19,772 bases of DNA from Lentisphaerota bacterium. GTDB taxonomy: Bacteria; Verrucomicrobiota; Kiritimatiellia; JAAZAB01. Numbering within the stretch: the stretch's first letter is position 1; each line of letters starts with the position of its first letter. Below, in pieces: positions 1 through 19,108 of this stretch. Position numbers and translations under genes: made by a program. Below the pieces are notes generated by a model that saw only the letters and a program-made list of their open reading frames with translations, was not told where the DNA came from and did no database searches. The stretch covers positions 1-19,772 of the forward strand of contig JACPGN010000075.1 of NCBI GenBank assembly GCA_016182435.1. Direction: 5' to 3'.

Positions 1-1581
1 CAATGGACCGCTCCGGCCCTGGCCTGGACGGCTCTGATCGGCGGCTTATTTATCGGCTTCCTGGGCTTAAACCTCTTGATGCGCAAGCAATGGTCGGAGC
101 ATGAGCGCTTTTCGTTTCCGCAAACCATTCTGCCCCGCAACCTGCTGGCCGAGGAGCAGTCTCGCGCCGGCAATTGGTACTATCCCCTTTTCCGCAACCG
201 GGCCATGTGGCTCGGGTTTGGGCTCACCCTGCCGCTGGTTATTTTAAAGGGTCTCCACTTTTATAATCCGGCTATTCCCGCCCTGTTGGTGACTGACAAT
301 AATTTCGGCGCATATTTTTCAAATCCGTTGGTCAAGGCCTTCTTTCAGGATGTGTACACCCCCGGAGGGATTGGCGCCGGCTTCAAGTTTTCCCTGCTGG
401 CCATTGCCTTACTGATTGATACCAACGTATTATTTTCGCTCTTGATTTCTTATTGGCTGTTCCAGCTTTGGAACCTGTTCGGCAAGGCCTTCAACTTTAC
501 GCGTTTCCCCGGCTACCCCTGGCGCCATCAGCAGCACATGGGCGCCTTTATTGCCTACGCCCTCCTGGCGCTCATTGTCGCCCGGCGGCATTTAGCGCAA
601 GTCTTTCGCGCAATTTTCTATTTCGGCGATGGTATTAAGATTCCCCTGGGCAACGAGCGGGGACAATATCGGCTGGCGCTCCTGATGGTCGTTCTGGCGC
701 TCGGGGTCATCGCGCTCTGGAGCGTCTGGACCGGCATGGGGCTGACCGCCGGGTTGCTGTTTTTCGGCTACCTATTGATCGTCGGTTTTGCCGCCAGCAA
801 AATCCGCGCCGAGTGCGGCGCGCCGTTTTCCTATATGACGCCCTATTTCGGCATGCAATTTGTGGCGGCGGCCGGCGGATTCGCCGTATTCGGCTCGACC
901 GGCATGCTGGTAGCCACGCTAGCCAGCGGGTTCATGGCCCCGGCCAGCTTCCTGCTCATGGCGCCAACTCAGATCGAAATGATCGAACTGGGCCGTCAGA
1001 TGAATGTGCGCCCGCGCGATCTCTGGGTCGGGCTTTTCATCGGCCTGCTGGGGACGCTCTTCATTGGCGGATTTGTCCTGCTCTGCTGGGGCTACGGGAT
1101 GGGCGTTGACCGGCTGGAAACTTCCTGGCCGTACTCGCAGAACTGGTACTTCAATGAGTTTCGCACGGGCGAGGCCAGCGCCGACCGCGCCTTTGAGAGC
1201 GGCACACTCGCCACAACACCCGAGACTCGACCGATGGATATTCTCCACAATCTGGACGCCAAGGGCTTGGGGTTTGGCCTGGTCATAACCTGGGCGCTGG
1301 CCGCGCTGCGCAGTTTATTCATGTGGTTCCCGGTCAATCCGATCGGTTACGTGCTGGCCCCAAGCCACTTCATGAGCGGATTCTGGTTCTGCGCCCTCCT
1401 GGCCTGGCTGATCCGGCTGCTGATCCTGCGCCTGGGCGGCGCGCGCATGATCCGCGCGGGGCTTGTGCCCTTCTGCCTCGGCATGTTCCTGGCCTCTATC
1501 TGTTCAATCATCCTGTTCGATCTGGTGGGAATCGGTCTGCGGTTGCAAGGCATCACCAATATCTACTGCGGCCTGCCATGA
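1..1581 (+). CDS. DUF6785/DUF6784 membrane protein, OPT-superfamily-like transporter (5' partial)
   Basis: The reading frame is open from base 1, so the N-terminus lies outside the window; about 526 residues are visible. The protein is a polytopic inner-membrane protein with many hydrophobic segments. A conserved loop, HERFSFPQTILPRNLL, lies just after the first visible membrane segment. It resembles the DUF6785 loop, and I compare it to the Pro-containing loops of oligopeptide (OPT/YSL) transporters. The last 100 or so residues match the DUF6784 pattern: WFPVNPIGYVL, then LLILRLGGARMIRAG, then a membrane segment starting PFCLGMFLA. The substrate is unknown; transport of peptides or other small solutes is inferred from the OPT resemblance only. 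The TGA stop overlaps the ATG of the next gene (ATGA at 1578-1581), indicating translational coupling to the giant permease. A second protein of similar architecture follows at 6922. Confidence 0.82.
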   Translation, partial: QWTAPALAWTALIGGLFIGFLGLNLLMRKQWSEHERFSFPQTILPRNLLAEEQSRAGNWYYPLFRNRAMWLGFGLTLPLVILKGLHFYNPAIPALLVTDNNFGAYFSNPLVKAFFQDVYTPGGIGAGFKFSLLAIALLIDTNVLFSLLISYWLFQLWNLFGKAFNFTRFPGYPWRHQQHMGAFIAYALLALIVARRHLAQVFRAIFYFGDGIKIPLGNERGQYRLALLMVVLALGVIALWSVWTGMGLTAGLLFFGYLLIVGFAASKIRAECGAPFSYMTPYFGMQFVAAAGGFAVFGSTGMLVATLASGFMAPASFLLMAPTQIEMIELGRQMNVRPRDLWVGLFIGLLGTLFIGGFVLLCWGYGMGVDRLETSWPYSQNWYFNEFRTGEASADRAFESGTLATTPETRPMDILHNLDAKGLGFGLVITWALAALRSLFMWFPVNPIGYVLAPSHFMSGFWFCALLAWLIRLLILRLGGARMIRAGLVPFCLGMFLASICSIILFDLVGIGLRLQGITNIYCGLP

Positions 1582-4500
1582 GCGCGAAGAAAACATCTTA
1601 TACCTGGGGCAGCCAACTCCTGGGCGCCGCGATCTTCGCGGCGCTTGGGCTCTCCGCGCTCGCCTTCTATGTCCTTTTTGCCCTTCCGCCGGAGCGTAAG
1701 CACCGAGAAGCATTTCAGCCCTCCTACTCCGAGCAACCGCTGATTGAAGCATTGGCCAGCAACGGCCTCAGCCAGCGCCTCCAGGAGATCGGGCGCGCCG
1801 GCCAAGCGGCGGGCGAACGCCAGATCGGTCGTTTCAGCGGCAGCCCCGGGTTTTACCGCGCGGAAAAAATGATTCTCGAGACATTTGCCAAAGCCCAACT
1901 TGAGATTCACACGCAAGAGTTGAGGGTGACCGTGCCCGTAACCGAGTATTGCGAAGTGCTCGACGAGCGCGGGCAACCGATTCCAGGCGTCACGTTATAT
2001 CCCTTCACCCCCAGCGGTTTGCTGCCCACGGTCTTGCCCACCAACGGCGTTCAAGGCGAGTTGGTGCTCGCCGAGCAATCGGACTTGCAGTTCCTGACTG
2101 GCCACCGGCCAGAGGAGAGCATCGTCTTGACCTATCTCGGGGCTTGCGACTGGGCCTCGCTGGCCGCCGTGGGCGTTAAGGCCGCCATCGTCATGGAAGA
2201 TGAACTCAAGCAGGCGTTAGCCGCCGACCCGGACAAACCGATGGCCTGGAACAGCATGGTCTCCGGCGCCGATGTGGCTTATCCCCGCTTCCTGGCCCGC
2301 GGACCATTAGCGGATTTTGCGGGCCGGAAACTGACGCTGCGTTGCAAAGTCACCTGGCAAGAAAGGTCCGTGAGAAACCTGTTAGGTGTGTTGAAAGGCA
2401 AAGGCAGTAACGACGAGGCGCTGCTGATTACCGCTTATTACGACAGCAACTCTTCTGTACCCGAACTGGCGCCCGGGGCCGAGCAGGCGATCCCGCTGGC
2501 CATGATGCTGGAACTCGCGCGGGCGTTAGCGCCCTACCAGGGGCAACTACGGCGCGACGTGATTTTCATAGCCACGGCCGGTCATGCCCAAGCGTTGGCC
2601 GGAATGTGCCGGCTGCTGGAGCCCATCGAGACGTTCACTCTGGGGACGGCTGACCGCCGTCCCTTGGAAGATCTGATACGGGATGAGAACATCCCGTTAG
2701 GTCATTCCCTGCGCGGTCTTGAACTCGTGGATGACGACTCGCGCTGGAGCCCGGAAGCCGTCCGCACTTTCGCCGAGGATTGGCCGAAGGAAGACGCCGG
2801 CTTCCGGGAGTGGTTTGGGCAACGCCTCATTACCGTGCTCGGGGAAATAAATCTGGATTTCAAGGAAGCCGTGATCGAGCGCCAATTGGCCTACCTGCGC
2901 GCCGGCTCGCCGGTCTATCGCGACGGGTTTGCGCCCGCCAAGGCGACCAATGAACAGCGCAAGGCCGCGGAAAACCGGCATCCACTCCTGGCGGCGCTTC
3001 TGGCAGCCAAGGCTTTAGATAACCGTTCGGGCAACATGCTGACTCAACCGCTTGACCAGTTGGTGGCACGACCGGAGTTCGCCGAATGGGATATGCGCAG
3101 CCGCCTGCGGGAGCTGTTGAACCGCATTGCCGGCTATCACCAGCGGCAAATCAAGGAATTCCAGGACTCCATCGCTATCCGGGAGCTGTTCGCCCCTTAC
3201 GAAGAGACCCTGACAATGAATCTGGAACTAAATTCAGGAGGATCGCGCGCTTATACGGATTTGTCCGTGCTCACCGGCCTGCCCGGGGTTGGCTCAATTG
3301 CCGAGCCGCAGGTCGCCGAAATTGCCCAGTTGCTGGAGGAAAAAGTTCCGACGATCGGCCGCCGGGCAGCTTTCGACGTTATCCAGTGGGGCGCGCAAGA
3401 CGCCGTTGGCTCGAAGGAACGGCCGAATGTCCACTATATATGGATGACCACGCTGGAGTCGGAACTCTGGACGCTGGCGGGGAGGCTCGGTTTCTCACTG
3501 CTGAACTACCAGTTTAAGCCGGAAAAGCTATGCACCCCCGATGATACCTTTGCCGGGATCAAGTCTGATGTGGTCAGTCAGCAGTTACCGGTTGTCGGAC
3601 GAGCTATTCTGGCCATGGCCGATGGCCGCGTGGCGTTCAAGGCCATCCCTTCCGACCGGAAAAAGCGGATTGCCACCCTGCATGGCAAGGTCTATGGAAA
3701 TGCGGGGGTCGGAACGCTGGTGCCGAACCACCCCATGGGGATCAACACGGTCGTGCGCGCCTATGTGCCGGGGAATCCGTTCGCAATAATCGACAGCCTC
3801 TACCGGGGTATTCGCGTTTATCCGATCCTGATGACTAATCCTTACGGGGAATACCGTAAACGGTTCAATTTCAACCTGATTTCCTACTCCGGCTGGGCCG
3901 GCGCGATTGCGCTCAATGCCGCGCGGTTCGACGAACAGGGCCGCGTGCGCTTTTACAAGAACGCTGCGACCTCGATTCAGAGTATCTACCCGAACGAGCT
4001 TTTCAGCGTCGCCGAGATCCGCTCGGCCAACCGGGCCCCGGCCAAGCCGATATCGGTCGGCGTTTTCCGCTGCGTGCCCATCGAGTTATTCGAACAGAAT
4101 AACCCCATGACCATGCAGGCCTTCAAAGGCGTGCAGTTTTTAACCAGCCAGGGCCTGGCCCAGCCAATCAACTTTCGATTCGACAAAAACATATCGTTCC
4201 TGGATCCCGATTTACGATTCTTTATTGCTTTACAGGATGGCGCTTCCGACAACAAGGAAATCCTCGAAAATCGCGCCTTCCTGCTGAATGTTGATCCGGA
4301 TGAGCCGCTTAACCCTGCGGAGCCGGAAATTTATGGGAAAGGTTACCTGGCGGCGGATAATCCCAATATCAGCTATGCCCACCAGGGGGCAGCCGCCTCC
4401 CTCCTGCGCACCAATGAAAAACGCCTGCAACTGCAGAAACGCTACGGCCTCGCTGATGAACTGATGCTCTCGTTCCATGAGCGCGGCAAGGAATTGCTGG

Positions 4501-6848
4501 CGCAAGCCCGCCAATACCGCTCCCAAAAAGACCCGCTCGGCGCCGTGCTGGCGGCGGGCAAAAGCCTATCCTATGCGATTAACAATCATCCGGTCATCCG
4601 TAAGAAGATTTTCCACGCTGTGATCGGCATTCTCTGGTACCTGGGCCTGCTGGTCCCATTTGTCTTTTTTTTCGAGAAGCTGGTCTTCGGTTTCACCGAT
4701 ATCCGCAAGCAGTTGCTCGCCAGCGGCATTATTTTCCTGGTCGTGTTCCTGCTGCTGCGCTGGTTTCACCCGGCCTTCCAGATGGTGCGCTCCTCGCTGA
4801 TGATCCTGCTGGGCTTCGTCATTCTCCTGCTGACGCTCCTGGTTACCTTGATGGTCAGCGGCAAGTTCCAGCAGAATATCAAGGAGTTGCGCAGCAAGGA
4901 GGGGCGGATCGAAGGGGCCGACATCAATCGCGGCGGCGTAATCGGCACAGCCTTCATGCTGGGTCTGAACAACATGCGCCGGCGCAAGGTGCGCACCGGC
5001 TTGACCTCGGTAACGCTGATCCTGCTGACCTTTGTCATCATCTGCTTTACCTCGATCTCAACGGACCTGATTGACATCGAATATCCGACCGGTAAGGCGA
5101 CCTGGAACGGCATCCAGTTCCGCAAGAGCAATTATCTGCCGCTCTCTGCGGCGGAGCTCAACAGCCTCAAGCAGATCTATGGCCAGCAATATCCGCTCTC
5201 CATCCATTCCTGGCTAACCTCCGCCATGCAGGGGATAGGGGGGGGGAGCATGCAGAACACCGAAATCATTGTTGACCGCGAATACACCGCGGGCGCCAAC
5301 ACGCTCAAGAAGCGCGCGGTGGTTAATGCTTCCGTGGCTCTTCCCTGGAATGAGCCGCAATTCTCCGGCCTGAACCGCCTCCTGCTGACTAAGCGCGGCT
5401 GGTTCCCACGCGGACCGTCGTCGCGCCAGGAGCTTGAGGCCGCTTTCAAGTCCGGTTATAAGGAGCAGGCCCTGGTGATCCTGCCGGAGACCGCGGCCCG
5501 CGAACTGGAAATCACGCCGGAAGCCGTAAATGCGGGCGAGATCGAAGTGATGATTCGCGGAGACACGTATATTGTGCAGGGGATCATTGACACTCTGGCG
5601 CTTAATAACATCACCGGCCTTGACGGCCGAAGTATTCTGCCTTACGACATCAATTCAATCCAGGCGCTGGGGTCCAGCTCGGCTGGTGTGCTTGTTCCTG
5701 AAGATGTCAAACGCTTGAACGCCGCGCAGGTAATCCTGGTCAATAAGCACCCGCTGGCCAAGCCGGGCGTGGAGGACGTGCGCATGGTTTCCTGCGGCAT
5801 TCTTTTCCCGAAGGAACCCTACTCAATCATCAAGGACGGCCCGCCACGGCCGGCCGTAGGCTACAAGGACCAACGGCGGCTGGTCACGGAGTTCCTGGAG
5901 CGTTCGGGCGAGAGAGCTTATTACGCTATTGACGGCATGGCTTACTACGGCGCGCGCCTGCGCGCGCGCACGTTCGAGGGACTCCTGGAGTTGTTGATCC
6001 CGATCCTGATCGCGGCCTTGACGGTCTTCAGCACTATGCGCGGATCGGTCTACGAGCGCCGCGATGAGATTTACGTGTATAATGCCGTGGGCATTGCGCC
6101 CAATCACGTGTTCTTCATGTTCATGGCTGAGGCCTGTGTCTATGCCGTGGTGGGGGCGATGATGGGCTACCTGCTCAGTCAATCCACCGGGAGGGTTCTG
6201 ATGGCCCTAAACCTGACGGGCGGGCTGAACATGAACTACAGCTCCATCGAAACCATCTATGCCTCGCTGACCATCATGGGCGCAGTGCTGCTCTCGACCC
6301 TGATTCCGGCGCGGGACGCCGCGCGGCTGGCCTCGCCCGCCGATCAGCGCGAATGGTCCGTGCCCGTGGCTGAGGGTGATGTGATGACCTTCAATCTGCC
6401 GTTCACCTTCACCCAGCATGATCGCATTGCCGTAATCAGCTACTTCCGGCGCTGGCTGGATTCCAACGGCGAGGGCAGCTCCGGGCCATTTTTCTGCGCG
6501 GCGCCGGAGCCCAGGTTGCAGAAGACCCCGGGCGAAGAGCGCAGCGGCGGACTGCTGCCGGGGATTACCACCACGATCTGGCTTAAGCCCTTTGACCTGG
6601 GTGTCTCGCAACGCTTAGATATTCGGTTGCCGACCGACCCGCAGACGGGCGAGTATATCGCCAACATCCGGCTCGTGCGCTTAAGCGGCACGGCCGCGGC
6701 GTGGAACCGCACGGTCAAGCCGTTCCTGAGCGTCCTGCGCAAACAGTTTTTGAACTGGCGGGCGGCCACGCCGGCCGAACGCGCCGAGATGTTTACGGAG
6801 GCCCGCGCGGTGCTGGCCAAGTGCGCGGTTGAATTGCCAATGAATTAG
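1578..6848 (+). CDS. Giant FtsX-type ABC permease with degenerate PA/M28-peptidase-like ectodomain
   Basis: This 1756-residue protein starts at the ATG in the ATGA overlap with the upstream gene; the open frame extends further 5' but lies inside that gene. A signal anchor spans about residues 12-36. Residues about 80-420 resemble a protease-associated plus M28 aminopeptidase fold (GSPGFYRAEKMILETF, NLLGVLKGKG, LLITAYYDS). The expected metal ligands look lost: the usual HxD His is Tyr287, the Asp of the GADDN loop is replaced by GAEQA (300-304), and the Glu pair is GH (335-336). A beta-rich carboxypeptidase-regulatory-like stretch (HGKVYGNAGVGTLVPN) follows near residue 700. Membrane segments at about 1008-1095, then 1130-1160 after LNNMRRRKVRTG, a MacB-like periplasmic part, and a C-terminal FtsX domain (about 1468-1590, with YERRDEIYVYNAVGIAP) complete the permease. 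A soluble tail of about 160 residues ends it. The partner ATPase is probably one of the two encoded downstream. It is more than four times the usual FtsX/MacB permease length. Confidence 0.85.
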   Translation: MSAKKTSYTWGSQLLGAAIFAALGLSALAFYVLFALPPERKHREAFQPSYSEQPLIEALASNGLSQRLQEIGRAGQAAGERQIGRFSGSPGFYRAEKMILETFAKAQLEIHTQELRVTVPVTEYCEVLDERGQPIPGVTLYPFTPSGLLPTVLPTNGVQGELVLAEQSDLQFLTGHRPEESIVLTYLGACDWASLAAVGVKAAIVMEDELKQALAADPDKPMAWNSMVSGADVAYPRFLARGPLADFAGRKLTLRCKVTWQERSVRNLLGVLKGKGSNDEALLITAYYDSNSSVPELAPGAEQAIPLAMMLELARALAPYQGQLRRDVIFIATAGHAQALAGMCRLLEPIETFTLGTADRRPLEDLIRDENIPLGHSLRGLELVDDDSRWSPEAVRTFAEDWPKEDAGFREWFGQRLITVLGEINLDFKEAVIERQLAYLRAGSPVYRDGFAPAKATNEQRKAAENRHPLLAALLAAKALDNRSGNMLTQPLDQLVARPEFAEWDMRSRLRELLNRIAGYHQRQIKEFQDSIAIRELFAPYEETLTMNLELNSGGSRAYTDLSVLTGLPGVGSIAEPQVAEIAQLLEEKVPTIGRRAAFDVIQWGAQDAVGSKERPNVHYIWMTTLESELWTLAGRLGFSLLNYQFKPEKLCTPDDTFAGIKSDVVSQQLPVVGRAILAMADGRVAFKAIPSDRKKRIATLHGKVYGNAGVGTLVPNHPMGINTVVRAYVPGNPFAIIDSLYRGIRVYPILMTNPYGEYRKRFNFNLISYSGWAGAIALNAARFDEQGRVRFYKNAATSIQSIYPNELFSVAEIRSANRAPAKPISVGVFRCVPIELFEQNNPMTMQAFKGVQFLTSQGLAQPINFRFDKNISFLDPDLRFFIALQDGASDNKEILENRAFLLNVDPDEPLNPAEPEIYGKGYLAADNPNISYAHQGAAASLLRTNEKRLQLQKRYGLADELMLSFHERGKELLAQARQYRSQKDPLGAVLAAGKSLSYAINNHPVIRKKIFHAVIGILWYLGLLVPFVFFFEKLVFGFTDIRKQLLASGIIFLVVFLLLRWFHPAFQMVRSSLMILLGFVILLLTLLVTLMVSGKFQQNIKELRSKEGRIEGADINRGGVIGTAFMLGLNNMRRRKVRTGLTSVTLILLTFVIICFTSISTDLIDIEYPTGKATWNGIQFRKSNYLPLSAAELNSLKQIYGQQYPLSIHSWLTSAMQGIGGGSMQNTEIIVDREYTAGANTLKKRAVVNASVALPWNEPQFSGLNRLLLTKRGWFPRGPSSRQELEAAFKSGYKEQALVILPETAARELEITPEAVNAGEIEVMIRGDTYIVQGIIDTLALNNITGLDGRSILPYDINSIQALGSSSAGVLVPEDVKRLNAAQVILVNKHPLAKPGVEDVRMVSCGILFPKEPYSIIKDGPPRPAVGYKDQRRLVTEFLERSGERAYYAIDGMAYYGARLRARTFEGLLELLIPILIAALTVFSTMRGSVYERRDEIYVYNAVGIAPNHVFFMFMAEACVYAVVGAMMGYLLSQSTGRVLMALNLTGGLNMNYSSIETIYASLTIMGAVLLSTLIPARDAARLASPADQREWSVPVAEGDVMTFNLPFTFTQHDRIAVISYFRRWLDSNGEGSSGPFFCAAPEPRLQKTPGEERSGGLLPGITTTIWLKPFDLGVSQRLDIRLPTDPQTGEYIANIRLVRLSGTAAAWNRTVKPFLSVLRKQFLNWRAATPAERAEMFTEARAVLAKCAVELPMN
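5238..5246 (+). repeat. Nine-G homopolymer inside the giant permease gene
   Basis: A run of nine G residues encodes a Gly-Gly-Gly stretch in the periplasmic part of the permease and is closely flanked on both sides by ATGCAG. Runs of this length are known slippage sites. Gain or loss of one base would truncate the protein before its C-terminal FtsX membrane domain. Confidence 0.9.
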
Positions 6849-6882
6849 CCACACTTGTCCGCCAAGGTGGAAAAATGCACAA

Positions 6883-6905
6883 GCCTGCCCGAGCGTCGGC
6901 CAGGG
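6883..6905. repeat. Dispersed near-palindromic repeat, copy 1
   Basis: This copy begins GCCTGCCC and ends GGCCAGGG, with a CCGA-GCG-TCGG centre. It differs from the copies at 13550 and 19087 only by one extra G in the centre. It lies in the 73-base gap between the giant permease gene and the second OPT-like gene. A small inverted pair, TCCGCC/GGTGGA, lies just upstream at about 6858-6871. Confidence 0.8.
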
Positions 6906-6921
6906 CAGAGCACAAAAAAAT

Positions 6922-8922
6922 ATGGCAGCTGAAATTAAAAAACGCTTCAGCGGCGACCAGGAGCTTGAGCAATATCGGGCCATCCTGGAGGAACCCGCCG
7001 AATTCAGGAACGGATTCACCTGGGTGACCGTGGCGGGGGCCTTCTTCTGCGGCCTCTTGATGATGCCCGGCACGATTTACCTGAGCCTGATGACCGGCGG
7101 CGGCGTCGCGGCCTCGTGGGTAACCCTGATCATCTTTTCCGAGGTAACCCGGCGCGCCATGAAGACGCTGAGCAAACAGGAGCTGGTCGTGCTCCTGGGC
7201 GTGGCGGGCACAATGTCAATGGGCGGCCCGATTGGCGACCTTATCTGGCGCCAGTACCTGATCCGCTCCGACGCCGTGCGCGACATGGGCCTGCTGGGCC
7301 AGTTCCCGTCCTGGTTCGCCCCCCAACCCACCAGCGACGCCATCCTCTCCCGCAGCCTGCTGCACTCGGACTGGATGATTCCCATTCTGCTGATGGTCTT
7401 TCTCTCCGTGATCGGCACGCTGCGGGCCTACACGCTGGGCTATTTCTTTTTCCGCCTGACTTCCGATATCGAGAAATTGCCGTTCCCGTTCGCCTCGATC
7501 GGCGCGCAGGGCTCCATGGCGCTCGCGGAGGCCGGTGAGAAGCACACAACCTGGAAGTGGCGAGTATTCTCGCTGGGCGCGATCCTGGGCCTGAGCTTTG
7601 CCGTCATCCAGATCGGCATTCCCCTGTTGACCGGTGCGTTCCTGACCAAACCACTGATGATTATTCCCCTGCCGTGGTACGACGCCACGACACTGACCGA
7701 GAGCGTGCTGCCGGCCACGCCCTTCGGCATGGTCATTGACCTCGGGCTGCTGCTCACGGGCATGATTGTGCCGTTCTGGGCGGCCATGGGCACCGGCGCG
7801 GGTATCTTGCTGACGACCGTCATGAACCCGTTGCTGCACAAGCTGGGCGTGCTGCAACGTTGGCAGCCGGGCATGGACACGATCAACACGACCTTCAACA
7901 ATTCCATTGACTTCTGGTGGAGCTTTTCGATCGGCGTCACCCTGGCCATCGCGGTCATCTCCTTCTATCAGACTATCCGGGACGTCACGCGCAAGGCGCG
8001 CGCGAGCCGAAAGAAGAAAGCGCTCGCCACCGGTGGAGCGCGCGAGAATCTGTGGGCAACGCCCCATCAGCGCGGCGACTTCTCGCCCTGGCTGGCCGTG
8101 GCGCTCTATGTCATCGGCTCGGGCGCGGTAGTGTGGGTTTCCCACCTGCTGGTGCCCCGGTTCCCGCTCTACTTCCTGATCCTCTTCACGCTGGTCTACA
8201 CCCCGATCATGTCCTACATTGACGCCCGGCTCCAGGGCATCTGCGGCCAGGTCGCCAATATCCCGCTGGTCAAGGAAATGGCTATTATTCTTTCGGGTTA
8301 CAAAGGCATTGATATCTGGCTGGCGCCGATTCCCCTGGACCAGTATGCCGGCACAACCTCGCACTTCCGCACGGTCGAGCTGACCGGCACCAATTTCTTC
8401 TCTTACGTCAAGTCCAGCGCATTGACCTTGCCGCTGGGCTTCATCCTCAGCTTTATCTTCTGGGCCTTCATCTGGAAGTCGGGCGCCGTGCCCTCGGACC
8501 TTTTTCCCTACGCCCAGAAAATGTGGGAGCTGACCGCCAAGAACACCGTCTTGCTCTATTCGGCCACGATGGAAATGGAAGGCGCCAAGCCGCTTTTCTT
8601 CCAGGCGCTGCATCCCAAGGTTATTGCCGGATCCTTTTCCTTCACCGTGCTGGCGTTCGTCCTCATGTCAATTATCAATGCGCCGATCATGGCCATCTAC
8701 GGGTTCCTGCAGTCGATCGGCGGCATGCCGCACGGATTCATTCTGCTGGTCGTCGGCAACCTGATCGGCAAGTTTTATTTTCAGAAGAGATTCGGCGCCA
8801 CGCGCTTTCTGCAGATTGTGCCGGTCCTGCTGGCCGGCTACGGAACAGGTGTGGGGCTGATCGCCTTGATCGGCGTGGCCATTAACCTGATTGTCAGCGC
8901 CGTCTCCGGCGTGCCCTTTTAA
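6922..8922 (+). CDS. OPT-superfamily-like polytopic membrane protein (peptide-transporter-like)
   Basis: The 666-residue protein has a short hydrophilic N-terminus (about 30 residues) followed by a dozen or more hydrophobic segments across its length. IEKLPFPFASIGAQG, after the early membrane segments, parallels the E-x-FSFP loop of the DUF6785 protein at 1-1581. The early TLSKQELVVLLGVAG and the C-terminal repeats of Gly-rich membrane segments also suit OPT-like carriers. The family assignment rests on these motifs and topology, and the substrate is unknown. The start is the ATG at 6922; no clear Shine-Dalgarno sequence precedes it, only an A-rich stretch after the repeat at 6883. The stop is 2 bases before the next gene. 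A long antisense frame inside this gene is a compositional shadow. Confidence 0.75.
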   Translation: MAAEIKKRFSGDQELEQYRAILEEPAEFRNGFTWVTVAGAFFCGLLMMPGTIYLSLMTGGGVAASWVTLIIFSEVTRRAMKTLSKQELVVLLGVAGTMSMGGPIGDLIWRQYLIRSDAVRDMGLLGQFPSWFAPQPTSDAILSRSLLHSDWMIPILLMVFLSVIGTLRAYTLGYFFFRLTSDIEKLPFPFASIGAQGSMALAEAGEKHTTWKWRVFSLGAILGLSFAVIQIGIPLLTGAFLTKPLMIIPLPWYDATTLTESVLPATPFGMVIDLGLLLTGMIVPFWAAMGTGAGILLTTVMNPLLHKLGVLQRWQPGMDTINTTFNNSIDFWWSFSIGVTLAIAVISFYQTIRDVTRKARASRKKKALATGGARENLWATPHQRGDFSPWLAVALYVIGSGAVVWVSHLLVPRFPLYFLILFTLVYTPIMSYIDARLQGICGQVANIPLVKEMAIILSGYKGIDIWLAPIPLDQYAGTTSHFRTVELTGTNFFSYVKSSALTLPLGFILSFIFWAFIWKSGAVPSDLFPYAQKMWELTAKNTVLLYSATMEMEGAKPLFFQALHPKVIAGSFSFTVLAFVLMSIINAPIMAIYGFLQSIGGMPHGFILLVVGNLIGKFYFQKRFGATRFLQIVPVLLAGYGTGVGLIALIGVAINLIVSAVSGVPF

Positions 8923-8924
8923 CC

Positions 8925-9995
8925 ATGGAAACAATCGGCACCCAGGTCAAACTGCCGTTCCAGCGCGCCTTGCAAATCGCCGTGCAGGGTATCCGCATCC
9001 GGCTGGGCCGCTCGCTGGTAACCATCAGCGGAGTAGCGCTGGGTATCGCCTTCCTGATGAGCAATCTAACCGCTCAATTCATCAAGGATGCGCTTGGCAA
9101 GGAGCGCGAGGTGCGCCAGACTGTTAACCTGATGGAAACAATTGTGCGCGGCGAAATCGGCAACTTCGAAGGCAAAAACCTCTCCGTGGCCGTGTTCGGC
9201 TCCCTCGGAGCCGCGGAACGCTCCTTACTGGAGCGGCTCGTCGCGGCCGAGCCGGCTATTATCAAGGCCTATGGCCTGAATGCGCCCGGACTCCAGAGCG
9301 CCGCTTTGCCAGGAATCGGACGGGACAGCCAGGTTCTGCTGGTGCTGGGCAGCGCTCGGCAGTGCCCCGTCGCGCTGGCCGAACTGGCGGAAGGCCTGCA
9401 GCAAAAAGTCGTGATTGACTCGGTCGCTGACCGAAAATTCCCCGCCGTCGCCAAGGCTATGGCCCTGGCCGAGCTTGGGCAGGCGGGCAGGCCCGGCGTC
9501 CCCGCGGTTCAAGTCCGGCGCGAGGTGTTTTTCGGTAAGGCCGCCGATGAACAACTCGTCAAGCTTGGCCGGGCGGACGAGCAGGAGCGGTTCCGCACAA
9601 TTTGGATCGTGATCATTTCCATCCTGGTAACGGTCATTGGCGTATCCAATGCCTTGCTGATGTCGGTAACCGAGCGTTTCCGCGAGATCGGCACGATGAA
9701 GTGCCTGGGAGCGCTCTCGAGCTTCATCCGCAAACTGTTCCTGATCGAGAGCGCCTTGATCGGTTTTTGCGGGTCGGTGCTGGGCATGTTAGCCGGCGCC
9801 TTGCTGCCGATTGTTGTCTTTGGCATCTCTTTTGATTTCCGCTCCGTGCTGCTCCAGATGAATTTCGCGCTGCTGTTGACGGCCGCGGCCGGAGCGGTAG
9901 CCGCCGGCACGCTCTTTGCCATTGGCGCGGCCATCTACCCGGCCAACATCGCCGCGCGCATGGTGCCGGCCACCGCCCTGGGGACCAATATCTGA
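8925..9995 (+). CDS. FtsX/MacB-type ABC transporter permease
   Basis: This 356-residue protein has the classic MacB/LolE layout. One membrane segment lies near residues 29-49 (LVTISGVALGIAFLMSN). A periplasmic domain of roughly 175 residues follows. A C-terminal FtsX domain starts near 226, with three hydrophobic blocks (about 226-248, 268-300 and 316-345). The cytoplasmic loop TERFREIGTMKCLGAL, after the first of these, is the characteristic FtsX coupling loop that contacts the ATPase. It should work at the inner membrane with the ATPase encoded one base downstream, probably in export or mechanotransmission rather than import. The ATG lies 2 bases after the upstream stop. It is slightly shorter than typical MacB permeases of about 400 residues because the periplasmic domain is small. 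Confidence 0.9.
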   Translation: METIGTQVKLPFQRALQIAVQGIRIRLGRSLVTISGVALGIAFLMSNLTAQFIKDALGKEREVRQTVNLMETIVRGEIGNFEGKNLSVAVFGSLGAAERSLLERLVAAEPAIIKAYGLNAPGLQSAALPGIGRDSQVLLVLGSARQCPVALAELAEGLQQKVVIDSVADRKFPAVAKAMALAELGQAGRPGVPAVQVRREVFFGKAADEQLVKLGRADEQERFRTIWIVIISILVTVIGVSNALLMSVTERFREIGTMKCLGALSSFIRKLFLIESALIGFCGSVLGMLAGALLPIVVFGISFDFRSVLLQMNFALLLTAAAGAVAAGTLFAIGAAIYPANIAARMVPATALGTNI

Positions 9996-9996
9996 A

Positions 9997-10770
9997 ATGG
10001 ACAATAATTCCTTAACCCTATTGTTCGGCGACGAGAGCGCCGCGCAGAAAAGCGGGTATGTGATTCGCGCCGTGGAGGTTTGCAAGGTCTATCGCCTGGG
10101 CGACGCTGAGACCCACGCCCTGCGCGGAGCGACCTTAGACGTGCGTCGGGCGGAATACCTCTCGATCATGGGACCCTCCGGTTCGGGCAAGACCACCCTT
10201 TTCAACATGATCGGCGGACTCAACAAGCCGACTTCCGGCAAGGTCTACATTGACCAGGTGGATATCGCCCAGCTCGATCCCTATGAGCTGGCCTGGTTGC
10301 GCTGCCGCAAGGTGGGCTACGTGTTCCAGACGTTCAACCTGATCCAGGTCATGTCCTGCATTGAGAACGTCATGCTGCCCATGGCCTTTGCCGGACTCAG
10401 CAGCGAGGACGCGCGCGACAAGGCCCTGGGTATTCTGGAGCTGGTGGGCTTGCGCGACCGCGCGCTGCATAAACCCGCCGAAATGTCGGGCGGCCAGCAA
10501 CAGCGCACCGCCATTGCCCGCGCCTTGGCCAACTCGCCGGATATCATCCTGGCGGACGAACCCACCGGCAACCTCGACCTGAAAACGGGCGAGGAGATTA
10601 TCGAGCTTTTCGCGCGCTTGCGCGACCAGCTCGGCATCACCATTATTACGGCCACCCACGACCTCAAGATGCTCAAGCGCTCGGACCGCATCGTCTGGAT
10701 CGAGGATGGGCGCATTACCAGGATCACCACGCCGGACGAAATGAAGATCAAGATCGAGGAAATTCATTGA
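9997..10770 (+). CDS. ABC transporter ATP-binding protein, MacB/LolD type
   Basis: The 257-residue ATPase starts at the ATG one base after the upstream stop; a longer open frame reaches into the permease gene and is not used. Walker A is GPSGSGKTT (residues 59-67), the Q-loop Gln is 111, the signature MSGGQQQR is 163-170, Walker B is [12 protein letters not shown] with catalytic Glu188, and the H-loop His is 221. [12 protein letters not shown] and the short single-domain form place it with MacB/LolD/FtsE-type ATPases that serve FtsX-fold permeases. The immediately preceding permease is the likely partner. The N-terminus carries about 20 extra residues compared with the second ATPase at 11371. 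All catalytic residues are present. Confidence 0.95.
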   Translation: MDNNSLTLLFGDESAAQKSGYVIRAVEVCKVYRLGDAETHALRGATLDVRRAEYLSIMGPSGSGKTTLFNMIGGLNKPTSGKVYIDQVDIAQLDPYELAWLRCRKVGYVFQTFNLIQVMSCIENVMLPMAFAGLSSEDARDKALGILELVGLRDRALHKPAEMSGGQQQRTAIARALANSPDIILADEPTGNLDLKTGEEIIELFARLRDQLGITIITATHDLKMLKRSDRIVWIEDGRITRITTPDEMKIKIEEIH

Positions 10771-10799
10771 GGAAAGCTATTGGTATCTAAAATAATACT

Positions 10800-10819
10800 C
10801 CCTCTCCCTTGGGAGAGGG
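10800..10819. repeat. Intergenic palindrome (CCCTCTCCC-TT-GGGAGAGGG)
   Basis: This is a perfect 9-base inverted repeat with a TT loop, followed by GCTGAGGTGAGGGG. It resembles widespread intergenic REP-like elements of this sequence type. It sits 30 bases after the ATPase gene, in the 169-base gap before the PqqD gene. There is no T-tract, so it is not a typical intrinsic terminator. Confidence 0.75.
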
Positions 10820-10876
10820 CTGAGGTGAGGGGAATGCTGGCTCACCGTCGCGTAGCGCTATGGCGGAGCACAGTAG

Positions 10877-10897
10877 GGCCGCACAGCTTGTGCGGCC
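10877..10897. repeat. Intergenic palindrome (GGCCGCACA-GCT-TGTGCGGCC)
   Basis: This is a perfect 9-base stem with a 3-base loop, 43 bases before the PqqD start. Together with the palindrome at 10800 it fills much of the only long gap in the operon. No T-run follows it. It could stabilise the upstream message or lower expression of the downstream half, but it could also be an inert mobile repeat. The segment between the two hairpins (10846-10858) recurs as its reverse complement at 13761-13773. Confidence 0.7.
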
Positions 10898-10939
10898 ACT
10901 GAGACAGTTAAAGGGATAGTTAATAATCTTGATGCAGCC

Positions 10940-11374
10940 ATGAAAATAAGTTGGAAATGGCGAGAACGCGGCGGGGCCAATCCCCGCAGCACCTATATCC
11001 GGGATCCGCTGGCCGTGATTCCGCTCACGCCGGAAAACGTGGAGCAGAAGCGCTCCAGCGCAGGGACGATCCACCTGCGCGCGCGCGTGCCGCTGAAAGG
11101 ATTGCGCAAGCGCGTTGCCGACTGGCTGGGTTATGAATATACCAAGACAGTCGCGCTCGACGAACTGGGCTCGGCGTTTTACGAGCAGGTGGACGGCCAG
11201 CGCAGCCTGCGCGAGATAGCTGAAGCCATGCTGAAAGCGAGCGGCCGGGGCCCGCGTGAACTCGAGGAGCATATCGTGCTTTTCACCAGACTGCTGATGG
11301 CCAGGAATATGCTCGTCCTGAAAGTGACTCCCGCGAATCGCCTCGCGGAGACAATACCGGAAGGACAACTATGA
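10940..11374 (+). CDS. PqqD-family peptide chaperone-like protein
   Basis: The 144-residue protein contains a PqqD-type winged helix: after a variable 70-residue N-terminus comes TVALDELGSAFYEQVDGQRS, then LREIAEAML and a final amphipathic helix (RELEEHIVLFTRLLMARNMLVLKV). PqqD proteins bind leader peptides and present them to radical SAM enzymes; many RiPP recognition elements share this fold. The N-terminal part is longer than in PqqD itself (about 90 residues) and includes basic patches (KISWKWRERGG, LKGLRKRVADWLGY). The TGA stop overlaps the ATG of the second ATPase, so the two are translationally coupled. A radical SAM gene follows that ATPase. A peptide-binding role is known for the family; its substrate here is unknown because no short precursor gene is visible. 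Confidence 0.8.
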   Translation: MKISWKWRERGGANPRSTYIRDPLAVIPLTPENVEQKRSSAGTIHLRARVPLKGLRKRVADWLGYEYTKTVALDELGSAFYEQVDGQRSLREIAEAMLKASGRGPRELEEHIVLFTRLLMARNMLVLKVTPANRLAETIPEGQL

Positions 11375-12102
11375 ACTCAATCGCATCCGGGCGCAACGTG
11401 ATTGCGGGAGCGGTGGATGTCAAGCGCAAGTATTCGCTGGGCAAGGAAACTGTCTGGGCGCTGAATGGCATTACCCTCGACATTTTCGAGGGTGAATATC
11501 TCTCCATCATGGGCCCCTCCGGTTCGGGCAAATCAACCTTCTTCAATATGATCGGCGCCTTGGATGTGCCCACCGCGGGAACGATCCGCTTCATGGGCGA
11601 AGACCTTTTCAAGTTGCCCGAGACCCGGCAGGCCTGGGTGCGCTGCAACAAGATCGGCTACATCTTCCAGACTTACAATCTGGTAGCGGTGATGACCGCC
11701 CTGGAAAACGTGGCCTTGCCCGCCGTCCTGCGGGGCGACTCGCGGAAGGAGGCCCACGCCAAGGCCGCTGCCATGCTGGAGACCGTGGGGCTTGCTCATC
11801 GCCGGGACCACCTGCCCTCCCAGCTCTCGGGCGGGCAGCAGCAGCGGGTGGCCATCGCCCGCGCGCTGGTCAACAGCCCCGCGGTCATCCTGGCGGACGA
11901 GCCTACCGGCAATCTTGACACCAAGACCGGCGCGGAGATCATTGAATTGCTCAAGCGCCTGCAGGTGGAGCAGCACGTCACGATCATCACCGCCACCCAC
12001 GACATCAAAATGCTCCAGATCTCCGACCGGATCGTGTGGATCCGCGACGGCCTCATTGAGCGCCTTGAGGAGCATGACCGGGTCAAGTTCACGGTCGCCT
12101 GA
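11371..12102 (+). CDS. Second ABC transporter ATP-binding protein, MacB/LolD type
   Basis: The 243-residue ATPase begins at an ATG inside the PqqD stop (ATGA), with an AAGGA ribosome-binding site just upstream. Walker A is GPSGSGKST (48-56), the Q-loop Gln is 100, the signature LSGGQQQR is 152-159, Walker B is [12 protein letters not shown] with Glu177, and the H-loop His is 210. It is clearly paralogous to the ATPase at 9997 (shared [32 protein letters not shown] and SDRIVWI stretches), yet diverged enough to suggest distinct permease partners. No permease lies directly next to it. By elimination it may serve the giant permease at 1578, or the two ATPases may form a heterodimer. Confidence 0.95.
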
Positions 12103-12136
12103 CCGTGTCGGCGCGCAAGCGCTACCGGGACCAGCC

Positions 12137-13531
12137 ATGAAAGTGCTTTTCGTTTATCCTGATATCGGCGTGCGCGGCGGCGCGCGCAGTTACCAGTTCG
12201 GCATCGGGCTCTTGAGCGCGTTACTCAGGGCGCGCGGCCACGCGACCAGTCTATATTACATGTTCGGGGATTATAACCCCGCGGCGCTCAAGCGCGCGGT
12301 CGCCATGTACCAGCCGGGCCTGATCGCGTTCTCGGCGGTCTCACCGCAGTTCCGGTTCGTGAAACAGATTTTCAAGGACCTGGCTCCTTTTCCCGCCTTT
12401 ACCATTCTGGGCGGACACCACGCCACCTTGGCGCCGGAATGTATGCAAACCATTGAAGGACTGGATGCAATCTGTATTGGCGAAGGCGAATATCCGCTTC
12501 TGGAACTGGTCGAGACCCTGGAGCGCGGCGGCGAAGCAAGCGCCATTCCCAACCTCTGGGTAAAAACCCGCAACCAAGGCATTGCGAAAAACGCGACCCG
12601 CCCTTTTACCGAAAACCTGGATGCGTTGCCGTTTGTGGACCGCGAGCTGTTTGATTACCAGGCAATCATTAATTCCGATTTCCACACAGGGCAGTTCATG
12701 TTTTCACGCGGCTGCCCCTACAACTGCACCTTCTGCAGTAATCACGCCCTGCGCGAGCGGCAGGAGGGCAAATACGTCCGGTTCCGCGGCGTGCCAAGCT
12801 GCCTCGCTGAAATCCGGGAGGTGACTCTCCGCTACCGCATGCGCGCGCTCTACTTCAATGACGACTGCTTCACTGCCCACCGTAATTTTGTGGACGAATT
12901 CTGCGCGCGCTATTCCGAGGAGTTCGCGTTGCCCTTCGCCATTAATGCCCGGCCGGAAACACTGAACGACGACATCTGCCGCGTGCTCAAAGCCGCCGGC
13001 TGCCAGCGGATCAGTATTGGCATCGAAAGCGGCTCGGAGAGCTTCCGTCAAAAAGTGCTTGGCCGGCGCCAGTCCAATGAGCGGATTGTCGCGGCCTTTG
13101 CCGCGGCCCACCGCGCGGGAATCAAGACCAAATCATTTAACATCGTCGGCTTCCCTTACGAGACGCCGGAGATCTTCCAGGAAACCGTGGACCTCAATGA
13201 GCGCATCCAGCCCGACAGCGTCATCATCGGCATCTTTGAGCCCTACCCCGGCACGCGGCTGGCGGAGATATGTTTGCAAGAGGGTTTTATCACCAGCGAC
13301 GGGCCGGATACCTGGTTCCTGGGCCGGATGGATACTATCCTGAACATGCCGGCCTTCCCGCGCCGCGCAATTTTGCGCTGCTTCCGGAATTTTGCGTTCA
13401 ACGTCTACAAGCGCCACGCGCCGTTGAGGGCCTTCTTTTATAAAATCTATTACTCAGCGGCCGGCGAACGGCTGATCCGGCTGCTCGCGCCCGTCAAGGA
13501 TCTCCTGCGCCGCCTGGTGATGGGGGTGTAG
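12137..13531 (+). CDS. B12-binding-domain radical SAM enzyme
   Basis: The 464-residue protein starts at the ATG 34 bases after the second ATPase; an in-frame extension further upstream overlaps that gene and is rejected. Residues 1-140 form a Rossmann-like cobalamin-binding-type domain ([46 protein letters not shown]). The radical SAM core follows, with C193, C197 and C200 in GCPYNCTFC binding the 4Fe-4S cluster. Later core strands are seen in [29 protein letters not shown] and [10 protein letters not shown]. The C-terminal 80 residues are basic and partly hydrophobic. No canonical DxHxxG cobalamin motif is visible, which is common in this class. Family members catalyse methylations, ring rearrangements and other radical chemistry. 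The reaction cannot be read from the sequence; proximity to PqqD suggests a peptide substrate, but lipid or hopanoid-like substrates remain possible. Confidence 0.9.
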
Positions 13532-13763
13532 GACGGACGACAGATGACAGCCTGCCCGAGCTCGGCCAGGGACGACGGACGACGGAATACGAAGCAAACG
13601 CCCAACACCGAACGCCCAACGTCCAATACCGGACGACAGACAACAGGCTCGCGTCCCGTCCTGTAGCCGCGAGACGACCCGCCTACAACGCTATGCGTAG
13701 CATTGCGGGCAGGTAGGCTCGCGTCTTGTTTTCCGGACAACGGGGCGGGTCAGATGGAGCGCG
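13532..13763. other. Intergenic repeat-rich segment between convergent genes
   Basis: No gene is supported. The segment contains GGACGACAGA at 13535-13544 and 13631-13640, AACGCCCAAC at 13597-13606 and 13611-13620, and AGGCTCGCGTC at 13645-13655 and 13715-13725. A hairpin lies at 13686-13705 (CAACGCTA/TAGCATTG, one mismatch, loop TGCG). It could act as a bidirectional transcription end between the + operon and the - strand DUF2723 gene, but no T-tract terminator is evident. Confidence 0.7.
13550..13571. repeat. Dispersed near-palindromic repeat, copy 2
   Basis: This 22-base unit begins GCCTGC and ends CCAGGG, around a perfect palindrome CCGAGCTCGG. It is identical to the copy at 19087-19108 and one base shorter than the copy at 6883-6905. 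It lies 18 bases after the radical SAM stop codon. Confidence 0.85.
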
Positions 13764-15047
13764 CTACGCGACGTCGTCTGGACCTGCTGGTTGGGTCTCC
13801 TTCGTTTTCCCATCGGAAATATTCTTAAGCCATTCAAGCACCGTTAGAACACCTAATCCAATAAAGATGCTCCATACTGCAAAAGATGGTATAAAAAGTA
13901 CGCGATAAGTGAAGGCGGATTGTACGTCCCAGCTTGGATTCAAGCCGATGATCAGAACGACGCTGAACATGAAGAAAGATAAGATACAGACCGCCCACCA
14001 CGCGCGCCATGAACCTTGGAAGAGGGACACCCGAATGATCGGGATAAGCCCAGCGACAACGAAGGGGAACATGAACTGGTGACAAAGCATCGTGACATAT
14101 CCATTCAGTTGATCGAGAAAAACAAGGGGGTCTCCGAAGACGTTGGTCGGCACAATCGCTGCGTATTGGCCCCGCGTGATGCAGTGCCTGAAGCCCTCCC
14201 AGGTCCGGGGATAGGCGAAGTACATGGGAGGGTGCCCCTCACCTGCGAGTGGAAGGTATGCATACAGCGAAAGGCCGGCAAGAATGAGGAGAATCATACG
14301 TGCGACCGTGCGTCCTTGCGGCAGGAACCGCAGCGACAGCGCCAGAGAAAGAATAACTCCGGAGACGACCGCCATGCCAACCCACGGGTCGGGCATGGAC
14401 TGTTGGAGGAAGATGACCAAGGCGGCAAGGACCGGCAAAATGGTCAGCGTGAAATCACGGAGCATAGCTTTGTCTACAAGGAACATGGCAAGGATATAAG
14501 AAGGAATCAAAAGGAAGAAAAAATAGGACTGGGCCAGACCGATTCCGAAGACAGCGGCAACAAGGTTTGCCATGCGTTGACTGCCCCATTTGAGCCATAT
14601 CTGCGTCGTCACGAGAAACATCATGAAAAAGAAGAGGGTTAGCGTATGGGTTTCGGTTATGAGCGACTGGGACCACATCGCGCGACTAACCGCAAACTGT
14701 GTGCCGGCGGCGACCGCCACAATGGCGGCATGCGCCGCTTGCGTTTTAGATGGAGATGGCGACCGCAGGGTACGGCCGACGCGACTCACTATGAGGGCAA
14801 CCAGGCCGCAGGAGAGACTGCCGAAGAATGCTGACATGAAGTTCGTTGCCCATGCGGGATTGGGATATCCGTGGTAGCGGACAAACCAAAACAACGAAAT
14901 GAAGAGCTTGGCAAGGAGATGCCACACAGGATAGCCGGGAACGCGCCCGACTCCAAGGTGCTGCCCGGCAACGACAAAAGCGCCCGATTGTTCAAGCATA
15001 ACGGTTGGCGCCAGGGTGAGGGTATAGAGAGTCAAGGAAAACATCAC
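13764..15047 (-). CDS. DUF2723 membrane protein (TMEM260/O-mannosyltransferase-like)
   Basis: About 427 residues with roughly 11 hydrophobic segments. The N-terminal block LYTLTLAPTVMLEQSGAF, then HLGVGRVPGYPVWHLLAKLF and ATNFMSAFFGSLSCG, matches the DUF2723 pattern (LTLaPTV, D/Q-SG-F, PGYP, N-x-SA). Family members are polytopic glycosyltransferase-like proteins related to eukaryotic TMEM260; here a Gln-Ser-Gly replaces the more common Asp-Ser-Gly. The first canonical start is GTG at 15047, next to ATG at 15044, but this cuts into the first membrane helix. The frame stays open upstream to about 15150 with a plausible coding stretch (FFARTDWLATGIVV) and no ATG, GTG or TTG. The true start may therefore be a non-canonical codon such as ATT at 15119, near the AAGGA at 15124-15128. 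The 3' end (DDVA-stop) runs into a sequence shared with the intergenic repeat at 10846. Confidence 0.78.
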   Translation of the reverse strand: MMFSLTLYTLTLAPTVMLEQSGAFVVAGQHLGVGRVPGYPVWHLLAKLFISLFWFVRYHGYPNPAWATNFMSAFFGSLSCGLVALIVSRVGRTLRSPSPSKTQAAHAAIVAVAAGTQFAVSRAMWSQSLITETHTLTLFFFMMFLVTTQIWLKWGSQRMANLVAAVFGIGLAQSYFFFLLIPSYILAMFLVDKAMLRDFTLTILPVLAALVIFLQQSMPDPWVGMAVVSGVILSLALSLRFLPQGRTVARMILLILAGLSLYAYLPLAGEGHPPMYFAYPRTWEGFRHCITRGQYAAIVPTNVFGDPLVFLDQLNGYVTMLCHQFMFPFVVAGLIPIIRVSLFQGSWRAWWAVCILSFFMFSVVLIIGLNPSWDVQSAFTYRVLFIPSFAVWSIFIGLGVLTVLEWLKNISDGKTKETQPAGPDDVA

Positions 15048-15438: not shown

Positions 15439-15491
15439 GATGCGCCTCAATCCAGCGGGGCGATTTTCTTAAAGCGCTTATTTCAATTCTC

Positions 15492-19086: not shown

Positions 19087-19108
19087 GCCTGCCCGAGCTC
19101 GGCCAGGG
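19087..19108. repeat. Dispersed near-palindromic repeat, copy 3
   Basis: Identical over 22 bases to the copy at 13550-13571 (palindromic core CCGAGCTCGG). It lies 20 bases after the deacetylase stop, directly after a CCGCC/GGCGG mini-hairpin, and is followed by TCCGCC...TTGGTGGA. That pair is also near copy 1, where it precedes the unit. Confidence 0.85.

What the first reader, a model, noticed from the sequence alone, without database searches (positions are those of the whole stretch)
1..13531. Candidate undescribed peptide modification and transport system: OPT-like x2, FtsX x2, MacB-type ATPase x2, PqqD, B12 radical SAM
Seen: eight co-directional genes with ATGA overlaps (1578, 11371) and gaps of 1, 2 and 34 bases. 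Known: PqqD-fold proteins deliver peptide substrates to radical SAM enzymes; MacB/LolD-type ATPases with FtsX permeases move peptides, lipoproteins or signals across the envelope; OPT proteins move oligopeptides. Inferred: a single pathway that modifies and traffics a peptide or envelope molecule. I know of no named system with this combination, but the novelty itself needs a database check.
Basis: partly seen in the sequence, partly recalled or inferred. Interest (0 to 1): 0.75.

Follow-up and report, generated by a model that had tools for sequence, protein, structure and literature searches.

The report
Unnamed bacterial ABC–OPT envelope transport cassette
A set of seven neighbouring genes, kept together in distantly related and mostly uncultured bacteria, appears to build an undescribed transport machine in the cell envelope, joining an ATP-driven pump, a pair of oligopeptide-transporter-like proteins, a dead peptidase used as a domain, and a small protein of a peptide-binding family; the radical SAM enzyme beside it does not belong to it.

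The parts
1..1581 (+). opt1: membrane protein, DUF6785+DUF6784, distant homologue of opt2 (5' end outside the window)
   Evidence: Pfam DUF6785 1.3e-56 and DUF6784 1.2e-18; hhalign with the opt2 family, colinear over 455 columns, E 2.1e-4 but probability only 46%; near opt2 in 19 of 24 bait-free loci, but in only 4 of 17 loci of L045-L079
1578..6848 (+). giant permease, 1756 aa: N-terminal TM, periplasmic M28/PA-type pseudopeptidase, TM helices, FtsX module, conserved C-terminal domain
   Evidence: adjacent to opt2 in 24 of 24 bait-free loci
1734..3647 (+). pseudo-M28 fold of the giant protein, about residues 53-690, with PA domain and a helical insertion (about 360-540); tested metal ligands absent
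5997..6326 (+). FtsX permease C-terminal region of the giant protein (residues 1474-1583)
   Evidence: PF02687 1.8e-12; LolC 4.4e-7
6354..6845 (+). conserved C-terminal domain of the giant protein (residues 1593-1756), after the last TM helix
   Evidence: conserved columns W1593, P1608, W1668, D1673, G1704, W1709, R1711, R1721, W1727 across 46 members
6922..8922 (+). opt2: OPT-fold membrane protein, 666 aa
8925..9995 (+). ftsX: second, small FtsX-type permease, 356 aa
   Evidence: PF02687 3.1e-13; YtrF 8.4e-12, MacB 2.4e-10; TM regions 27-50, 222-249, 271-338
9997..10770 (+). abc1: LolD/MacB-type ATPase
   Evidence: PF00005 1.6e-32; LolD 217.8 bits, under the 307.75 cut-off; Walker A GPSGSGKTT, signature SGGQQQR, Walker B ILADEP read in the translation
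10940..11374 (+). pqqD-like: PqqD-fold protein with N-terminal extension
   Evidence: PF05402 1.6e-4, 22.4 bits vs cut-off 23.4; 23 of 26 family members match PqqD at E<=0.01; family profile vs PqqD structure 3g2b 2.3e-10
11371..12102 (+). abc2: second LolD/MacB-type ATPase
   Evidence: PF00005 1.7e-34; LolD 234.3 bits, under the cut-off; motifs [22 protein letters not shown] in the translation
12137..13531 (+). NOT part of the system: B12-binding radical SAM gene (bystander)

Best explanation
The seven genes 1-12102 encode one envelope machine. SHOWN here: they are conserved together; opt2 has the OPT fold (predicted structure); the giant protein joins an M28/PA fold without the tested metal ligands to an FtsX-type permease; both ATPases keep their ATP-binding motifs; the PqqD-like protein tracks the system across genomes, strongly in two phyla and less so in a third; the radical SAM gene does not. 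INFERRED: the giant and the small FtsX protein form a heterodimeric type VII (LolC/LolE-like) permease driven by abc1 and abc2 (about 0.75); opt1 and opt2 sit with it as a paired OPT-type membrane pore or carrier (about 0.6); the pseudopeptidase domain, in the periplasm, binds a peptide-like ligand without cutting it, as nicastrin is thought to do (about 0.5); the PqqD-like protein selects a peptide-like cargo in the cytosol (about 0.5); ATP-driven movement then sends the cargo outward and the pseudopeptidase domain receives it (about 0.4; inward about 0.25). The confidence below is for 'one machine of these seven genes, without the radical SAM enzyme, handling a peptide-like cargo in either direction'.
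For: Gene set conserved despite changed order. Among 24 bait-free opt2 loci: giant adjacent in 24, cassette genes on one strand in 23, an ATPase near in 22, ftsX in 21, opt1 in 19, two or more ATPases in 16, pqqD in 13; every stretch ends within 10 kb of opt2 on at least one side, and L001's own pqqD and second ATPase lie just beyond the stretch used (L116). PqqD-opt2 co-occurrence at E<=1e-10: 12/14 vs 0/101, 11/17 vs 4/102, 67/68 vs 1/13 (Fisher p 1.5e-14, 1.3e-8, 2.4e-12, uncorrected for kinship; cut-off set after seeing the lists). In 9 of 11 genomes chosen because the locus in hand lacked pqqD, a match at E<=1e-3 lies elsewhere. Gene distances correlate (Mantel r 0.91 opt2-giant in 64 loci, 0.93 opt1-opt2 in 44, 0.81 opt2-pqqD in 44). 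Structure. Ligand loss.
Against: No substrate, direction or physical contact was tested. Known OPT transporters import (recalled), which fits outward transport poorly. opt2 genomes without a pqqD at E<=1e-10: 2 of 14, 6 of 17, 1 of 68; 2 of 11 without any match; so PqqD may be an accessory. In the broader set L045-L079, opt1 is near opt2 in only 4 of 17 loci, two ATPases in 1 of 17, pqqD in 8 of 17, so the core there is giant, opt2, ftsX and one ATPase. L086 shows only opt2 and giant. opt1's kinship with opt2 rests on a weak profile match. No conserved cargo-like small gene was found. Mantel and co-occurrence tests are not corrected for the species tree.
Confidence: 0.6

Rival explanations
1. 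Import machine: the pseudopeptidase domain catches a peptide or metal-chelate in the periplasm, opt1/opt2 carry it inward as OPT proteins do, the ABC part releases the ligand or frees it from the outer membrane, and the PqqD-like protein takes it up in the cytosol.
For: opt2 fold match to Yellow Stripe 1, solved with an iron chelate (its importer role is recalled); NCBI names some opt2 homologues 'peptide transporter'.
Against: Type VII ABC systems known to me act outward or by mechanical signalling (recalled). I saw no outer-membrane receptor or binding protein recurring beside the cassette, but the flanking gene clusters were only partly annotated.
Confidence: 0.25
2. Not a transporter of a peptide: a LolCDE- or FtsEX-like machine that sorts lipoproteins or transmits a signal to the cell wall, the OPT-fold and pseudopeptidase parts being structural.
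For: Closest curated ATPase is LolD; LolC, LolF and FtsX among solved relatives; opt2 is in 68 of 81 genomes of L068's phylum, as for a core envelope function.
Against: The PqqD family, which binds peptides in other systems (recalled), tracks opt2 tightly there; opt2 is patchy in two other phyla (14 of 115, 17 of 119), unlike an essential lipoprotein sorter. Whether these genomes also hold a standard LolCDE was not tested.
Confidence: 0.2
3. One reading: a single peptide-modifying and transporting pathway with the B12 radical SAM enzyme as its modifying enzyme.
For: Adjacency with a 34-base gap in the window; the same two genes about 1.1 kb apart in L001; PqqD proteins serve radical SAM enzymes elsewhere (recalled).
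Against: No close relative of this radical SAM protein near any other cassette examined; next-best orthologues in genomes without opt2; a deacetylase gene lies between in L001's genome.
Confidence: 0.03
4. Chance neighbours: general transport genes that happen to be close.
For: ABC and FtsX families are abundant.
Against: Conserved gene set across phyla with changed order and genome-wide co-occurrence of pqqD with opt2 even when unlinked.
Confidence: 0.01

Closest known systems
LolCDE / MacB / YtrF type VII ABC systems
   Same: FtsX permeases and LolD-like ATPases; two unlike permeases in one set as in LolC/LolE
   Different: one permease carries a pseudo-M28 half of about 1000 residues; two OPT-type proteins and a PqqD-like protein in the same cassette; ATPases and permeases score under the LolD, LolC/E and MacB cut-offs
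OPT/YSL transporters (barley Yellow Stripe 1)
   Different: 13% identity; no Pfam OPT match; encoded as a pair with an ABC system
Nicastrin and nicalin (and transferrin receptor): M28-fold proteins without peptidase activity
   Same: M28/PA fold, metal ligands lost, membrane-anchored
   Different: those are eukaryotic; here the fold is fused to an ABC permease; the non-enzymatic role of those proteins is recalled
PqqD / RiPP recognition elements
   Same: PqqD core by profile
   Different: no conserved radical SAM partner or precursor gene near it, N-terminal extension, tied to a transport cassette
PADLOC model CARF_m8--CARF_LolE_TM (PDLC01991)
   Same: its positions 11-596 of 810 align to the membrane half of a giant-family protein (L058, residues 836-1472, E 1.6e-59)
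   Different: no CRISPR or CARF search was made here; the paper I recall as its source is not held, so where its CARF domain lies is not known to me

Membership tests
Type VII (MacB/LolCDE-type) ABC system | FtsX-type permease domain | tested here: met
   PF02687 in giant and ftsX
Type VII (MacB/LolCDE-type) ABC system | LolD/MacB-like ATPase with intact ATP-binding motifs | tested here: met
   PF00005, best curated relative LolD; motifs read in the translation
Type VII (MacB/LolCDE-type) ABC system | large region between TM1 and TM2, then further TM helices | tested here: met
   hydropathy of ftsX and of the giant's second half
LolCDE proper | scores over the curated LolD and LolC/LolE cut-offs | tested here: not met
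   217.8 and 234.3 vs 307.75 bits for LolD; giant and ftsX far below the LolC/E cut-offs
OPT/YSL transporter | OPT fold | tested here: met
   for the predicted model of opt2 only; opt1 by weak profile homology
OPT/YSL transporter | match to a curated OPT sequence family | tested here: not met
   opt2 no Pfam or NCBIfam OPT match; opt1 only DUF6785/DUF6784
OPT/YSL transporter | proton-coupled uptake of oligopeptide or metal chelate | not testable with these tools
   needs transport assays
M28 metallopeptidase | M28 fold | tested here: met
M28 metallopeptidase | co-catalytic metal ligands | tested here: not met
   4 of 5 ligand positions tested (numbering recalled); 149 of 158 members keep none, 9 keep one, none keeps two
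PqqD / RiPP recognition element | PqqD core by profile | tested here: met
   window protein alone just under the Pfam cut-off; 23 of 26 family members match PF05402 at E<=0.01; 3g2b 2.3e-10
PqqD / RiPP recognition element | conserved partner radical SAM enzyme and precursor peptide | tested here: not met
   this enzyme's family; other radical SAM families were not sought; small ORFs in gaps and 1-kb flanks
PqqD / RiPP recognition element | binds a peptide | not testable with these tools
   needs binding assays
CARF-containing defence effector (PADLOC CARF_m8) | CARF domain | tested here: inconclusive
   PADLOC match confined to the permease part; the last 168 residues alone and the first 1105 residues alone give no PADLOC match at E<=0.01

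The most novel reading that the evidence does not exclude
A new class of envelope machine: an ATP-driven LolCDE-like permease pair coupled to a paired OPT-fold pore, with a nicastrin-like pseudopeptidase as periplasmic cargo receptor and a PqqD-like protein as cytosolic cargo selector. It would be a dedicated transporter for an unknown class of peptides, part of the core gene set of Armatimonadota and scattered in PVC bacteria.
Probability: 0.35. Interest if true: 0.82.

Novelty: new variant of a known kind. Interest (0 to 1): 0.62.

Why it matters
If the seven genes are one machine, ABC-driven and OPT-type transport are combined in a way I know of no precedent for. A nicastrin/nicalin-like pseudopeptidase would act inside a bacterial permease, and a PqqD-like protein would serve transport without a modifying enzyme. 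opt2 is in 68 of 81 sampled genomes of L068's phylum (Armatimonadota), and a reduced set is in a named strain, Desulfatibacillum alkenivorans DSM 16219 (L058: ftsX-abc-giant-opt1-opt2, with c8-pqqD elsewhere), so its function can be tested. Automatic annotation calls some of its parts 'peptide transporter' and 'M28 family peptidase'; the second name is misleading, since the tested metal ligands are gone.

Tried and rejected
Radical SAM as member: rejected. Precursor peptide in the cassette: 1910 small ORFs in gaps and 1-kb flanks of 97 loci gave no conserved family; the largest cluster (6 loci) lies antisense at DUF1559 genes, apparently a shadow. DUF1559 pseudopilins as cargo, suggested by neighbouring copies in several loci: present in 11 of 14 opt2 genomes and 47 of 101 others, but with 0-6 matches in 11 of the 14, and at 20 in 18 genomes without opt2 (the tool scored only about 20 candidates per genome), so no clear link. 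Metallopeptidase role: rejected for the tested ligands; the ligand corresponding to D179 (recalled) was not tested. Defence role: the PADLOC match covers only the permease part. Gene c8 (about 310 aa, next to pqqD in all 11 of its loci in L045-L079) is near 9 of 24 bait-free and 8 of 17 broader opt2 loci but none of the 43 of L001-L044; no member-wide Pfam match; not folded. Rfam and tRNA scans of the window: nothing. The first ligand count took the wrong column for the first histidine and was redone. The pqqD model was contaminated by out-of-frame ORFs and was replaced. Flanking genes: most clusters were not annotated.

Limits of the ligand count: the 158 proteins are 46 from the loci and 112 of the 119 further homologues listed (those over 1500 aa; 806 were found, 120 listed); some proteins occur in both sets. 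Limits of the co-occurrence tests: some seed genomes of the profiles are in the samples (for example those of L001, L045, L068, L074).

Papers: only search listings and abstract starts were seen, and two lists were capped (20 of 26, 8 of 290); no paper text was read; the one look-up was not held. The library holds open-licence PMC papers only, so absence there is weak evidence.

Full report
WHAT IS THERE. The first gene is cut by the window edge. Pfam and NCBIfam give: DUF6785+DUF6784 (opt1); FtsX plus Peptidase_M28 (giant, 1756 aa); no useful match (opt2); FtsX (ftsX); ABC_tran twice, nearest LolD; PqqD just under the cut-off; B12-binding radical SAM. No whole genome is held for the window; its nearest relative found is L001 (record titled Lentisphaerae bacterium, 76% identity in ftsX).

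IS IT A UNIT? One scan with ftsX kept the best 80 of 422 matches, as 79 loci. In L001-L044 (mostly PVC bacteria) the order opt1-giant-opt2-ftsX-abc1-pqqD-abc2 recurs, many loci being cut by contig ends. Among L045-L079 (Planctomycetes, Armatimonadetes, Zipacnadia, Desulfatibacillum and others by record title), 17 loci hold opt2; giant and ftsX are near in 17 of 17, one ATPase in 16, two in 1, pqqD in 8, opt1 in 4, in other orders and often with a further gene c8 before pqqD. To avoid the bias of the ftsX bait I searched 115 genomes of L001's phylum with opt2: 14 genomes, 25 copies, and fetched their surroundings. Of 24 loci analysed (the 25th, G063:C6, was held only as a 5-kb stretch, L080, and was left out), giant is adjacent in 24, all cassette genes on one strand in 23, an ATPase near in 22, ftsX in 21, opt1 in 19, two or more ATPases in 16, pqqD in 13, c8 in 9, the radical SAM in 0. 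Every stretch ends within 10 kb of opt2 on at least one side; one of the 24 is L001's own locus, whose pqqD, second ATPase and radical SAM lie just beyond the stretch used (L116). Gene order differs between loci while the set largely stays, which points to function rather than inherited order. Distances between genes correlate (Mantel r 0.62-0.93 over 40-74 loci, 0 of 999 permutations reaching the observed value in each of six pairs); this is not corrected for the species tree, but one genome bin holds two cassettes (L007 and L020) in which all genes of the second are less like the window's than those of the first.

PQQD BELONGS, THE RADICAL SAM DOES NOT. A profile of 26 cassette PqqD proteins (A3) was run on the same genome samples as opt2. 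At E<=1e-10 the counts are 12 of 14 opt2 genomes against 0 of 101 without opt2 in L001's phylum, 11 of 17 against 4 of 102 in the phylum of L045, and 67 of 68 against 1 of 13 in the phylum of L068, an Armatimonadota record. The cut-off was set after seeing the lists; weaker matches, mostly to the PqqD core alone, occur in some genomes on both sides. Fisher p values: 1.5e-14, 1.3e-8, 2.4e-12, uncorrected for kinship. A completeness filter of 90 was asked for in the first phylum, but the tool shows no completeness values. Of 11 genomes picked because the locus in hand lacked pqqD, 9 carry a match at E<=1e-3 elsewhere, the weakest best match being 6.7e-13; in Desulfatibacillum alkenivorans c8 and pqqD overlap at a separate locus. 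For the radical SAM protein the same 115 genomes hold four full-length orthologues at 58% identity or more: L001's own and three in genomes without opt2; the other 13 opt2 genomes have at best 40%. Annotated neighbours of those three include ribosomal protein L20 and a PfkB kinase (L102) and a lipid A acyltransferase (L104); no cassette gene was found near any of the three. In L001's genome a polysaccharide deacetylase gene separates the radical SAM gene from abc2.

MECHANISM. The two unlike FtsX permeases and the LolD-like ATPases suggest one LolCDE-like heteromeric ABC complex. The constant giant-opt2 adjacency suggests that the OPT-fold proteins are part of, or coupled to, that complex. A pseudopeptidase ectodomain is a natural non-cutting peptide receptor; a PqqD-like protein is a natural cytosolic peptide selector. 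I therefore propose a machine for a peptide-like cargo. Outward movement (about 0.4) is favoured because type VII ABC systems work outward and a cytosolic selector fits export; inward movement (about 0.25) is favoured by the habits of OPT transporters. A Lol- or FtsEX-like role without peptide cargo is a serious rival (0.2). None of these steps beyond gene content, predicted folds and ligand loss is shown.

NOVELTY. Eight full-text searches of the held library showed no description (listings only, two of them capped). Relatives of the giant's membrane half are already in PADLOC as CARF_m8--CARF_LolE_TM; the paper I recall as the source is not held. The parts are known kinds; the combination is new to me. 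I rate it a new variant of a known kind and keep the 'new class' reading as the novel case.

Noticed in passing
window 13550-13571 and 19087-19108: An identical 22-base repeat starts about 20 bases after the stop codons of the radical SAM gene and of the polysaccharide deacetylase gene; an inverted copy (95% complementary) lies inside ftsX at 9463-9484.
   Followed up: no
window 10771-10939: The 169-base gap between abc1 and pqqD folds more stably than shuffles (-64 kcal/mol, z -3.07); its hairpin-like 20-mer has no exact + strand copy in loci L001-L116.
   Followed up: partly
window 15492-16042 (-): PemK/MazF-like toxin gene (PF02452, 6.8e-28) with an overlapping 72-aa upstream ORF without Pfam match, a likely antitoxin; next to it a DUF2442 protein at 15127-15450.
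   Followed up: partly
window 13764-15047 (-): TMEM260-like protein, a family described as protein O-mannosyltransferase-like (PF11028, 1.4e-19).
   Followed up: no
L045-L079, e.g. L051:8495-9406, L077:6041-7018; also L117:5822-6697: Unnamed gene c8, about 310 aa, by eye two repeats of one domain, adjacent to pqqD in all 11 of its loci in L045-L079 and overlapping pqqD at a separate locus in Desulfatibacillum alkenivorans; no member-wide Pfam match.
   Followed up: partly
L084/L085 (G116:C12) and genome G116: Two opt1-giant-opt2 sets in tandem; this genome has five opt2 copies.
   Followed up: no
genomes of L068's phylum (Armatimonadota): opt2 is present in 68 of 81 sampled genomes, near-universal for an unnamed system.
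   Followed up: yes
giant-family proteins P0124, P0191: Public records name this protein 'M28 family peptidase' although the family has lost the tested metal ligands.
   Followed up: yes
L003:9528, L005:11061, L015:4346 and 6957: Small ORFs of one cluster sit between cassette genes; the L005 one matches the 23S rRNA-intervening sequence protein family, the others were not scanned.
   Followed up: partly
giant residues 1466-1615; L058 giant residues 836-1472: PADLOC model CARF_m8--CARF_LolE_TM matches the permease half (E 4.5e-38 and 1.6e-59), hinting at CARF-fused relatives of this permease.
   Followed up: partly
L058 (Desulfatibacillum alkenivorans): The cassette follows glycosyltransferase, histidine phosphatase and polysaccharide deacetylase genes.
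   Followed up: no
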